From NCBI RefSeq assembly GCF_000800455.1, contig NZ_CP007456.1:2294001-2358000 (forward strand): 64,000 nt of DNA, given 5' to 3'. The notes under the pieces were generated by a model. That model saw only the letters and a program-made list of their open reading frames with translations. It was not told where the DNA came from and searched no databases. Each line of letters begins with the position of its first letter. The stretch's first letter is position 1. Shown here piece after piece: positions 7,302 to 56,846 of the stretch. The translations under genes were made by a program, and so were the position numbers. The DNA is from Bifidobacterium catenulatum PV20-2. Lineage in GTDB: Bacteria; Actinomycetota; Actinomycetes; Actinomycetales; Bifidobacteriaceae.

Positions 7302-7402
7302 GATTTGTCATCCTTTCAGAGGCAGGTACGTGCCTCACGATCCGTTGTAAAGGGATTTCTTCCGGTGCCTCGCCTTGCGGCTTACAACTTCGACAAAGCC
7401 AC

Positions 7403-54945: not shown

Positions 54946-54994
54946 GCTATTCAATCGTTGCCGTTTTTATGCATTATGCTAGAAAGCGGCACAA

Positions 54995-55068
54995 GCCTCC
55001 TTAGCTCAGATGGCCAGAGCGGCCGCCTTGTAAGCGGCAGGTCGTCGGTTCGATCCCGACAGGAGGCT
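54995..55068 (+). tRNA. tRNA-Thr (anticodon TGT)
   Basis: 74-nt cloverleaf: acceptor arms gcctcct / aggaggc, D-arm agctcagatggccagagc, anticodon arm ccgcc-ttgtaa-ggcgg-like with TGT at 55029-55031, T-arm gtcggttcgatcccgac. CCA is not encoded. Confidence 0.95.
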
Positions 55069-55073
55069 CGAAA

Positions 55074-55087
55074 CCCGTTTTGACGGG
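55074..55087 (+). terminator. Short hairpin after tRNA-Thr
   Basis: cccgt-ttt-gacggg-type hairpin directly behind the tRNA; weak, with a short T-rich tail. Confidence 0.45.
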
Positions 55088-55096
55088 CTTTAACCT

Positions 55097-55226
55097 CTTA
55101 CCATGGGTAAGTGATCCAGAAGCCTTCCCCCAACTTATGGCTTCTGGCGACCGGACGAGGCTTCCCCCAACCTGCCTTGTCCGGACAGGGGGCAGGACAT
55201 CCCCTTCTCTCCTGCCCCCTTTTTTC
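55097..55226 (+). ncRNA. Candidate small RNA with twin C-rich-loop hairpins
   Basis: Ordered structures on the plus strand: a 6-bp hairpin (cttacc-atg-ggtaag, 55097-55111); a 9-bp hairpin (ccagaagcc / ggcttctgg, 55116-55147); an 11-bp hairpin (ccggacgaggc / gccttgtccgg, 55151-55184, one G-T pair); and a terminator (gggggcagga / tcctgccccc plus six T, 55188-55225). Both middle hairpins expose the same loop sequence TTCCCCCAAC. C-rich loops of this kind could pair with Shine-Dalgarno sequences, or with the GGGGG of the terminator stem. No protein frame with a ribosome site covers this stretch. It could be a separate sRNA, or a processed leader. No known RNA family is recognised. Confidence 0.5.
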
Positions 55227-55355
55227 TTTAGTCCTTTTCCTCGAAAATGTGGCGGTATAGATAAAACCAGCGGAACCCATGCCATTCGTCCCGATCTGAC
55301 CGTTACAATGACGGCGATGTAGGCAGCCGCTGGAAAGAGGACGTATGACGAGAAG

Positions 55356-56846
55356 GTGGACCCCCGGAGATTTGTGACGCTTCGGCGTGCTCGCGTTACG
55401 GCATGCGTGGTCTCGTTGACGCTCGCTTCGACGCTCGCATTCGGCGTAGGCGCGCGCAAAACCGTCGCTCTGACCATCGATGGTGAAACCACCACCGTAA
55501 CCACATACGCGATGAGCGTCGACCGCCTGCTGCAGGAACGCGGCATAAAGGTCAAAACGCATGATCTTGTGGAATCCACCAGCCCCACCAACATGCTGAG
55601 CAACCATGACGTGGTGACGGTACGAAGCGCCTACCAGACCACCATCACCATCAACGGGCAGGAAGTGCCCTTCTGGACAGTGGCGACCAGCGCCGAACAG
55701 CTGATTGGCTTTTTCGAACAAAACGAAGCAGACGCGGCAAAAGTCACCGTCAACATCGACAACGTGTACAACAAACTCACCGGCGGACTGATCATCAACC
55801 AAAACGGGCCGGTCACCGTCATCGCAGACGGGCAAAGCTCCGAAGCACCAAATGGCAAACTGCCGGCGGCCTCCATTCTTGACTCCAAAGGCATCACGCT
55901 GAACAAGGAGGATCGCGTCAGCGTCGAAAAAGACAACGGCGAAACGATCCTGCGCGTCCGCCGCGTGACGCACGGCGAGGAGACACGCACGAAAGCGGTG
56001 CCTTTCGGCACGCAAACCATCGTCGATTCCAGCCTACAGCCCGGCGAAGTCGTGGTCCGGCAGGAAGGCGAGGAAGGCGAAATCCAGCAAACATACGACG
56101 TCACGTATGTGGATGGCGAGAAGGAAAGCGAGACGCTGACTAACGAAACGACCACGAAAATCGCCCTTGACCGGATCATCGCAGTAGGACCGGCAGCATC
56201 TTCCGACGATTCTGGTTCGGGTGGCGGATCCGGCAATTCCGGAGATACTGGCAATGCCGACAATTCCGGGAAAAATGATAATTCCGGAAAGAACGATAAT
56301 TCGGATAAGAACAACAATTCCGATAATTCCGACAAGAAAAACGATTCGAGCAATAATTCCGATAATACGAACAATTCGGGCGACAACAAGAAAGACGACA
56401 GCGAGAAAGACGATTCCGGATCAAAAACGGACCCGGATCCGACGCCAACTCCAGACCCGACCCCCACACCGGATCCGACACCGACGCCCACCCCGACACC
56501 GCAACCTTCCGATCCTTCGGCAGGATGCCGCCTCTGCCACCCCTCCCCCGCGCAGGCACAGGCCTACGCAGCCGGAGCCGCGGCGCAATATGGCTGGACC
56601 GGGCAAAACTGGACCGATCTGGTAAAACTGTGGACGCGCGAATCAAGCTGGCTGTGGTATGCGGAAAACGCATCCGGAGCTTACGGCATCCCGCAATCGC
56701 TTCCAGGCAGCAAAATGGCGGCATTCGGCGCAAACTGGCGTGACGATGCGGCCGTACAGATCGACTGGGGTCTAAGCTACATCGCGCAATGCTACGGCAG
56801 CCCATCGAAGGCATGGGAGCATTCCGAGCGAATTGGATGGTATTAA
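55356..56846 (+). CDS. Secreted cell-wall protein: DUF348/G5 repeats and lytic-transglycosylase-like domain
   Basis: 496-residue exported protein related to resuscitation-promoting/YabE-type wall hydrolases. N-terminal membrane helix or signal near 15-33; DUF348-like repeats (KTVALTIDGETTTVTTYAMS near 35, then near 93 and near 155), G5 domain near 200-275 (RVTHGEETRTKAVPFGTQ), a linker of Asn/Ser/Asp/Lys then Pro/Thr-Asp repeats (about 285-385), and a C-terminal transglycosylase-like domain with LWTRESSWLWYAEN near 425 and GIPQSLPGSKMA near 447. Glu of the RESSW motif is the likely catalyst. Start is uncertain: GTG 55356 or GTG 55374 (ggag four bases before). Confidence 0.85.
   Translation: MDPRRFVTLRRARVTACVVSLTLASTLAFGVGARKTVALTIDGETTTVTTYAMSVDRLLQERGIKVKTHDLVESTSPTNMLSNHDVVTVRSAYQTTITINGQEVPFWTVATSAEQLIGFFEQNEADAAKVTVNIDNVYNKLTGGLIINQNGPVTVIADGQSSEAPNGKLPAASILDSKGITLNKEDRVSVEKDNGETILRVRRVTHGEETRTKAVPFGTQTIVDSSLQPGEVVVRQEGEEGEIQQTYDVTYVDGEKESETLTNETTTKIALDRIIAVGPAASSDDSGSGGGSGNSGDTGNADNSGKNDNSGKNDNSDKNNNSDNSDKKNDSSNNSDNTNNSGDNKKDDSEKDDSGSKTDPDPTPTPDPTPTPDPTPTPTPTPQPSDPSAGCRLCHPSPAQAQAYAAGAAAQYGWTGQNWTDLVKLWTRESSWLWYAENASGAYGIPQSLPGSKMAAFGANWRDDAAVQIDWGLSYIAQCYGSPSKAWEHSERIGWY

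What the first reader, a model, noticed from the sequence alone, without database searches (positions are those of the whole stretch)
55097..55226. Undescribed small RNA candidate: two hairpins with identical TTCCCCCAAC loops and a U-tailed terminator
Seen: between tRNA-Thr and a wall-hydrolase gene lie a 9-bp and an 11-bp stem-loop, four bases apart, with different stems but the same loop sequence (55124-55134 and 55161-55171). They are followed by a terminator whose 5' arm begins GGGGGC. Loop conservation with stem divergence points to selection on the loop. Known: C-rich loops in small RNAs of other bacteria pair with GGAGG ribosome sites. Inference: an antisense-acting sRNA, or an attenuator in which a C5 loop competes for the terminator G5 arm.
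Basis: partly seen in the sequence, partly recalled or inferred. Interest (0 to 1): 0.75.

Follow-up and report, generated by a model that had tools for sequence, protein, structure and literature searches.

The report
Conserved three-hairpin small RNA in bifidobacteria
Nearly every Bifidobacterium genome examined carries, usually just after a threonine tRNA gene, a small structured RNA whose hairpin tips are kept almost unchanged while two of its stems vary; it looks like an uncatalogued regulator of gene expression in these gut bacteria, though its targets are unknown.

Summary
Three strong hairpins (P1, P2 and terminator P3) lie at 55116-55225. A covariance model finds the element in 108 of 112 genomes of the genus and in four further genera of the family at E of 1e-5 or better. 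Outside the family, matches are few and weak. In 80 distinct sequences, 23 of 31 pairs show changes on both sides. Loops P2 and P3 are near-invariant while stems P1 and P2 vary.

It usually lies between tRNA-Thr(UGU) and an rpfB-like gene. Yet it occurs without rpfB downstream (B. aquikefiri, B. scaligerum), and rpfB occurs without it (G012, G025). Many species show separate -10-like boxes for each. This argues for a stand-alone trans-acting sRNA, not an rpfB attenuator.

It reaches no Rfam threshold and is not 6C RNA by reciprocal test. In architecture it resembles 6C and Xanthomonas sX13. Antisense pairing of the C-rich loops to G-rich ribosome sites is the best mechanism but is inferred: a scan of 294 predicted translation starts showed no enrichment. 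No transcript evidence was available.

The parts
54995..55069 (+). tRNA-Thr (UGU), directly upstream; in the window's own clade the probable source of transcription (inference)
   Evidence: tRNA-Thr(tgt) upstream on the same strand at 78 of 79 genus elements
55074..55087 (+). small hairpin CCCG...CGGG after the tRNA, seen in the close relatives with a short spacer; not a convincing terminator
   Evidence: spacers of the short-spacer loci printed
55097..55111 (+). P0, CTTACC-ATG-GGTAAG; its 3' part GTAAG (55107-55111) is invariant in sequence; helix not supported by covariation
   Evidence: 0 of 4 pairs with double change; GTAAG invariant in 80 distinct rows
55116..55147 (+). P1 hairpin, C-rich loop 55125-55138
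   Evidence: (9 of 9 pairs with double change)
55151..55184 (+). P2 hairpin, C-rich loop 55162-55173
   Evidence: (9 of 9 pairs with double change)
55187..55225 (+). P3 terminator hairpin plus U tract, third C-rich loop 55198-55209 (CAUCCCCUUCUC)
   Evidence: (5 of 9 pairs with double change)
55304..55309 (+). TACAAT, candidate -10 of the rpfB-like gene, downstream of the terminator
   Evidence: a -10-like box (5 of 6 or better) 51-53 nt upstream of the extrapolated rpfB start in 20 of 67 loci, against 0-4 in the other three-offset windows tried
55356..56846 (+). rpfB-like wall hydrolase gene (G5 + DUF348), followed by ksgA and ispE-like genes; usual neighbour, not part of the RNA

Best explanation
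55097-55225 (perhaps from 55070) encodes a stand-alone, trans-acting small RNA of about 130-155 nt, conserved across Bifidobacteriaceae. It has a conserved 5' GUAAG motif and three stable hairpins. The last is the transcription terminator, and in the window all three present C-rich loops (UUCCCCCAAC, UUCCCCCAACC, AUCCCCUUCUC). Most likely the loops pair with G-rich sequence at or near ribosome sites of several mRNAs and lower their translation, as reported for sX13 and B11/6C. In many species the RNA seems to have its own promoter just after the tRNA-Thr gene. In the window and its closest relatives it is probably cut from a tRNA-Thr precursor whose first strong terminator is P3. Shown here: predicted structure, covariation, loop conservation, distribution, separability from rpfB. 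Inferred: transcription, promoters, processing, pairing, targets. My confidence is about 0.9 for an RNA gene, 0.85 for trans rather than an rpfB leader, and 0.6-0.65 for loop pairing.
For: Covariation on A4 (84 matches, 80 distinct): 96.4% of cells paired; 23 of 31 pairs and 261 cells with changes on both sides; 0 of 500 shuffles reach any of the five measures; slid registers give 4-11 such pairs. A4 is fitted to the model, but on the plain MAFFT alignment of 57 sequences RNAalifold gave 13 of 17 predicted pairs with double change, all in P1 and P2 (its four other pairs joined the G arm of P3 to the loop C residues and did not covary). Conservation, mean top-residue frequency: P2 loop 0.93 and P3 loop 0.97 against P1 stem 0.80 and P2 stem 0.77; GTAAG invariant. 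In 24 more divergent matches (21 from other genera, 3 from the genus), CCCCTTC occurs in 24, GTAAG in 22, CCCCAA in 20 (22 matches, 2). Distribution: 108 of 112 genus genomes; named Bifidobacterium, Gardnerella and Bombiscardovia records. Own promoter: -10-like hexamer at +19 after the tRNA end in 25 of 76 distinct spacers, against 0-7 at each other printed offset (0-59); at +17 to +21 in 42 of 76. Separability: B. aquikefiri copy between crgA and a convergent gene, B. scaligerum copy before a convergent ion-channel gene, no rpfB match in either stretch. Not coding: GTAAG-to-P3 distance modulo 3 is 32/23/29 for 0/1/2. Loop C residues predicted unpaired. sX13 acts with C-rich loops on G-rich mRNA sites (PMC3771888, abstract text and passages).
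Against: No expression data were available. In a sample of 294 predicted genes (464 kb; the genome has 2.37 Mb), complementarity of the P1 and P2 loops to translation starts was about equal to or lower than for reversed or permuted loops. P3 was above its reversed loop (18 against 8 at -13 kcal/mol) but equal to permutations (16.7, sd 7.0). The C-rich P1 loop is lost in some members (L078, L084, L087; L163, L169, L136), so three loops are not strictly required. Four of 112 genus genomes gave no match. The window itself has no -10-like box after the tRNA.
Confidence: 0.65

Rival explanations
1. Transcription attenuator or RNA switch in the leader of the rpfB-ksgA-ispE operon, in which a C-rich loop competes for the G5 arm of the terminator.
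For: An rpfB-like gene lies downstream on the same strand at 75 of 79 genus elements. M. tuberculosis has an RNA switch with a terminator in the rpfB leader of the same operon (PMC6009663, passages). RNAalifold on the plain alignment did pair the G arm with the P3 loop C residues.
Against: It persists without rpfB and without a recognisable sense gene downstream in B. aquikefiri and B. scaligerum. rpfB follows tRNA-Thr without the element in G012 and G025. A -10-like box lies after the terminator, 51-53 nt before rpfB, in 20 of 67 loci. The distance to the extrapolated rpfB start varies from 78 to 1261 nt. The three-hairpin fold is both the minimum-energy and the centroid structure. The Mtb switch is described as apparently restricted to a subset of pathogenic mycobacteria.
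Confidence: 0.08
2. The RNA acts by binding a protein (a sponge for a C-binding RNA-binding protein, or for Rho), not by pairing to mRNA.
For: Repeated C-rich loops on varied stems, with an invariant GUAAG, would also fit a protein ligand. No target enrichment was seen.
Against: The loops differ in their flanks (CCCCAAC against CCCCUUCUC), and twelve positions of the P3 loop region are at 95% or more in A4, more than simple C-binding would ask. The precedents I looked at, sX13 and B11, are reported to act by pairing.
Confidence: 0.15
3. A diverged true homologue of 6C RNA that moved to a new locus.
For: Same phylum, C-rich loops on tandem hairpins, similar size; 6C is not found in the own genome or 24 other genomes of the genus.
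Against: RF01066 is not among matches up to E = 10 in the window element nor up to E = 1 in 11 relatives. R1 does not match the four 6C loci up to E = 1. There is a third loop in the terminator and a GUAAG motif. An acetyl-CoA-synthetase-like gene lies by one 6C locus and none of the four stretches holds a tRNA.
Confidence: 0.1

Closest known systems
sX13 (RF02232, Xanthomonas)
   Same: 115 nt, three stable stems, three C-rich apical loops; reported to act on G-rich motifs near translation starts without Hfq (PMC3771888, abstract text and passages).
   Different: Another phylum; no Rfam match at threshold (one distant relative, L158, 26.8 bits against a gathering score of 50); loop flanks, GUAAG motif and tRNA-Thr link are specific here.
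6C RNA / B11 (RF01066, Actinomycetota)
   Same: Actinobacterial sRNA with tandem hairpins and C-rich loops; B11 represses through a 5' UTR with a G tract (PMC10470900, passages).
   Different: Two hairpins, typically with six C (PMC4046766, passages), against three with five, five and four C in the window; fails the 6C model and the reciprocal test; other locus.
M. tuberculosis rpfB leader RNA switch
   Same: Upstream of rpfB-ksgA-ispE with a terminator (PMC6009663, passages).
   Different: Described as apparently restricted to a subset of mycobacteria; the element here is separable from rpfB in both directions.
ar7, ar14, CcsR1, BjrC68, BjrC80 sRNAs of proteobacteria
   Same: Among the sub-threshold Rfam matches of the window element or its relatives, beside unrelated families such as microRNAs; that several of them carry C-rich loops is recalled.
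   Different: All far below gathering scores; different phylum.

Membership tests
6C RNA (RF01066) | covariance score at or above 47 bits | tested here: not met
   (window); not listed up to E = 10 in 54950-55360; 0 of 25 genomes of the genus. The control was weak: of 14 known genomes only C. glutamicum rang, below the cut-off.
6C RNA (RF01066) | two hairpins, each loop typically with six C | tested here: not met
   window loops have five, five and four C in a row, in three hairpins; some relatives have longer runs in P1 (L011, L016)
6C RNA (RF01066) | reciprocal recognition by the model built here | tested here: not met
   R1 gives no match up to E = 1 in the four 6C loci L031-L034
sX13 (RF02232) | covariance score at or above 50 bits | tested here: not met
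   not listed for the window; 26.8 bits in one relative, L158
sX13-like mode of action | three stable stems with three C-rich apical loops | tested here: met
   (predicted structure; window and most genus members, not all relatives)
sX13-like mode of action | G-rich target sites near translation starts, regulated through the loops | tested here: inconclusive
   no enrichment in 294 predicted starts; regulation itself not testable here
rpfB leader RNA switch | cis position in the leader of rpfB in every holder | tested here: not met
rpfB leader RNA switch | two alternative folds with antiterminator | tested here: inconclusive
   the three-hairpin fold is minimum-energy and centroid (ensemble frequency 0.31); pseudoknots were not modelled

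The most novel reading that the evidence does not exclude
A core post-transcriptional regulator of Bifidobacteriaceae, taking the place that 6C RNA holds in other Actinomycetota. It works on many mRNAs at once through three C-rich loops, the third of which is built into its own terminator and is the most conserved loop. In the window's clade it is released from a tRNA-Thr precursor, so that its level follows tRNA supply and growth rate.
Probability: 0.3. Interest if true: 0.75.

Novelty: new member of a known kind. Interest (0 to 1): 0.6.

Why it matters
Bifidobacteria are major gut bacteria, but in the papers I could search there is little on their regulatory RNAs. The B. breve transcriptome paper lists in its Table 2 RNase P, tmRNA, 4.5S RNA and three riboswitches (PMC5746004, passages). 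The B. animalis survey lists 11 sRNAs, none shown beside tRNA-Thr or an rpfB-like gene, and its method removed sequences containing tRNAs (PMC4338058, section 24 and passages). A genus-wide RNA with fixed loops gives a clear first target for knock-out, and a further case of C-rich-loop sRNAs in a distant lineage.

Tried and rejected
Rfam at gathering score, at E up to 10 in the window element and at E up to 1 in 11 relatives: no family assignment.

6C model in relatives: 4 of 39 genomes, none of the 25 of the genus; the control was weak. R1 across 297 genomes of the order: 27 with a match, of which 21 are in the family; the 6 outside have E 1.6e-4 to 0.092. In these six, GTAAG occurs in 0, CCCCAA in 0 and CCCCTTC in 2 (L144, L146); I take them as chance, the CCCCTTC being what the model selects for. 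The five non-bifidobacterial pattern hits (of 55) do not match R1 up to E = 1. Phage and plasmid records: no match.

Target search. The complement of the P3 loop core, AGAAGGGGAT, occurs at 28 places in 10 genomes, 10 of them the RNA itself. The complement of the P1/P2 loop, GTTGGGGGA, is frequent; 30 places were printed with their surroundings and by eye show no consistent position at start codons. The duplex scan at 294 starts showed no enrichment. I name no target.

Peptide-coding reading: rejected, because the GTAAG-to-P3 distance is spread over all three frames.

Counts to read with care. The 79 elements, used, were picked by a pattern that demands GTAAG and CCCCTTCTC; it missed 6 of the 85 genus loci (5 with a span of 96-97, and L089). 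A1 was drawn from them, so the '79 of 79' motif counts and the invariant columns of A1 are partly circular and are not used. A4 took 84 of the 85 loci with R1 instead (L089 left out); R1's 19 seeds come from the pattern set. The divergent set left out L138 and L139, added. One search used a simple gene caller of my own.

Full report
What is there. The finding's coordinates are right. After tRNA-Thr(UGU) at 54995-55069 come a small CTTACC/GGTAAG palindrome (P0, 55097-55111), hairpin P1 (55116-55147), hairpin P2 (55151-55184) and a terminator hairpin P3 (55187-55220) with six U. The 11-mer CTTCCCCCAAC is indeed identical in P1 and P2. The fold is far more stable than shuffles (z = -8.3), and the loop C residues are predicted unpaired. 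The next gene is an rpfB-like wall hydrolase (G5 and DUF348 domains), followed by ksgA and an ispE-like kinase.

Where it occurs. A DNA search found a match in 85 of 112 genomes of the genus. A covariance model R1, built from 19 of these, found 108 of 112; the misses are G012, G025, G043 and G079. In the family, 115 of 151 genomes match at E up to 0.1. At E of 1e-5 or better these come from five genera (g1, g20, g21, g22, g29); the sixth genus counted there has a single hit at E 0.095. Among 297 genomes of the order, 27 match, 21 of them in the family and 6 weakly outside. A pattern scan of named genomes returned 55 stretches, 50 of them Bifidobacterium, Gardnerella, Bombiscardovia or 'Bifidobacteriaceae bacterium', and 5 others, which do not match the model. 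The window's genome is close to G020, whose contig has the same length (2,337,234) as B. catenulatum subsp. kashiwanohense JCM 15439.

Evidence for an RNA. On 84 matches (80 distinct) aligned to R1, 96.4% of pair cells are standard pairs. 23 of 31 pairs have changes on both sides, and no shuffle of 500 reaches any of the five measures. By helix: P1 9 of 9, P2 9 of 9, P3 5 of 9, P0 0 of 4. P0 is therefore conserved as sequence, not proven as a helix. Because that alignment is fitted to the structure, I also note the MAFFT alignment of 57 sequences, where RNAalifold found double change in 13 of 17 pairs, all in P1 and P2; its other four pairs joined the G arm of P3 to the loop C residues, a register that gaps in that alignment favour, and none of them covaried. 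Conservation is highest in the loops: P2 loop 0.93, P3 loop 0.97 and P1 loop 0.83, against 0.80 and 0.77 for the P1 and P2 stems; the P3 stem, at 0.95, is also conserved. GTAAG is invariant. In 24 more divergent matches (21 from other genera of the family, 3 from the genus), CCCCTTC is kept in 24, GTAAG in 22 and CCCCAA in 20. Two C runs in P1/P2 are kept in only 11 of the 22 counted for that, so the C-rich P1 loop is the dispensable part. GTAAG-to-P3 distances fall over all three frames, so no reading frame is kept.

Separable from rpfB. Of 79 genus elements, 78 have tRNA-Thr upstream and 75 have rpfB downstream on the same strand (of the four without, L026 has only 232 nt of sequence after the element). 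The exceptions are telling. In B. aquikefiri the element (L189 5350-5484) lies between crgA and a convergent mannosyltransferase-like gene, 3.5 kb from tRNA-Thr. In B. scaligerum (L028, the genome of L219) the next recognisable gene is a convergent ion-channel gene. None of L189, L219 and L028 has an rpfB match. Conversely, G012 and G025 have tRNA-Thr followed by rpfB and no element, in the stretch between with filters off as well as in the genome scan. The RNA therefore does not need rpfB beside it, nor rpfB the RNA.

Promoters. Downstream of the tRNA, -10-like hexamers peak sharply at +19 (25 of 76 distinct spacers; 42 of 76 at +17 to +21). Nine loci close to the window have a short spacer; seven of them, the window's own form included, have no such box, while L006 and L007 have a weak one. 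By my simple test a terminator-like hairpin precedes the element in 9 of 76 spacers, among the short ones only in L007. In the window the RNA is therefore probably transcribed with tRNA-Thr and processed (inference). rpfB has a -10-like box 51-53 nt before its start in 20 of 67 loci, against 0-4 in other windows of three offsets; in the window it is TACAAT at 55304.

Mechanism. The architecture, short stable hairpins offering C-rich loops, is that of sX13 in Xanthomonas, which represses mRNAs with G-rich motifs through its loops without Hfq (PMC3771888, abstract text and passages). It also resembles B11/6C in mycobacteria, where repression of a G-tract 5' UTR survives the loss of either C-rich loop (PMC10470900, passages). 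I infer the same mode here. The direct test I could run did not add support. In 294 predicted genes from 464 kb, loops P1 and P2 were no more complementary to translation starts than reversed or permuted loops, give or take one gene. P3 was above its reversed loop (18 against 8 at -13 kcal/mol) but not above permutations (16.7, sd 7.0). An sRNA with few targets would not show in such a test.

Relation to known families. No Rfam family reaches its threshold in the element. The sub-threshold matches in the window or its relatives include the sRNAs ar7, BjrC80, ar14, sX13, BjrC68 and CcsR1, all proteobacterial and far below threshold, beside unrelated families. 6C is absent from these lists, R1 does not hit 6C loci, and the four 6C loci have no tRNA beside them. 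It therefore works like 6C and sX13 as far as anatomy goes, but is a member of neither family.

In print. I searched for Bifidobacterium small RNAs. The B. breve transcriptome paper (passages) and the B. animalis sRNA survey (section 24 and passages) do not list this locus in what I saw of them; their supplements were not read, and most subscription journals are not held.

Limits. The 79 elements were selected by a pattern containing GTAAG and CCCCTTCTC, which biases motif counts but not the neighbour counts in an obvious way.

Noticed in passing
L149 1501-1611 (-), L150 1501-1611 (-), L167 990-1100 (+); genomes G161, G174, G182: A second, weaker copy of the RNA in three genomes of genus g29: GTGTAAG motif, two hairpins with CCCCAA-type loops, no clear U-tailed terminator, no tRNA in the stretch. 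Looks like a paralogue.
   Followed up: partly
G000, G001, G028, G074, G011, G015, G041, G104, G063, G051: The 9-mer GTTGGGGGA occurs 163 times in 10 genomes against 54 for its reverse (up to a few per genome are the RNA's own complement), and in several of the closed genomes listed its strand switches about half-way round the chromosome, as for a replication-oriented motif (the list of places was capped).
   Followed up: no
L078, L084, L087: In these three the P1 hairpin persists but its loop is no longer C-rich, while the P2 and P3 loops and GTAAG are kept.
   Followed up: partly
G043, G079: Both genomes lack the RNA and also lack a full-length rpfB-like gene (only partial matches), as if the whole locus had been lost or rebuilt.
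   Followed up: partly
L153, L166: GC-rich inverted repeats of the type GCTCCCCCT...AGGGGGAGC that attract weak model hits; probably a separate repeat family.
   Followed up: no
window 7304-7363 (-): msiK RNA (RF01747), a known cis-regulatory element, above its gathering score.
   Followed up: no
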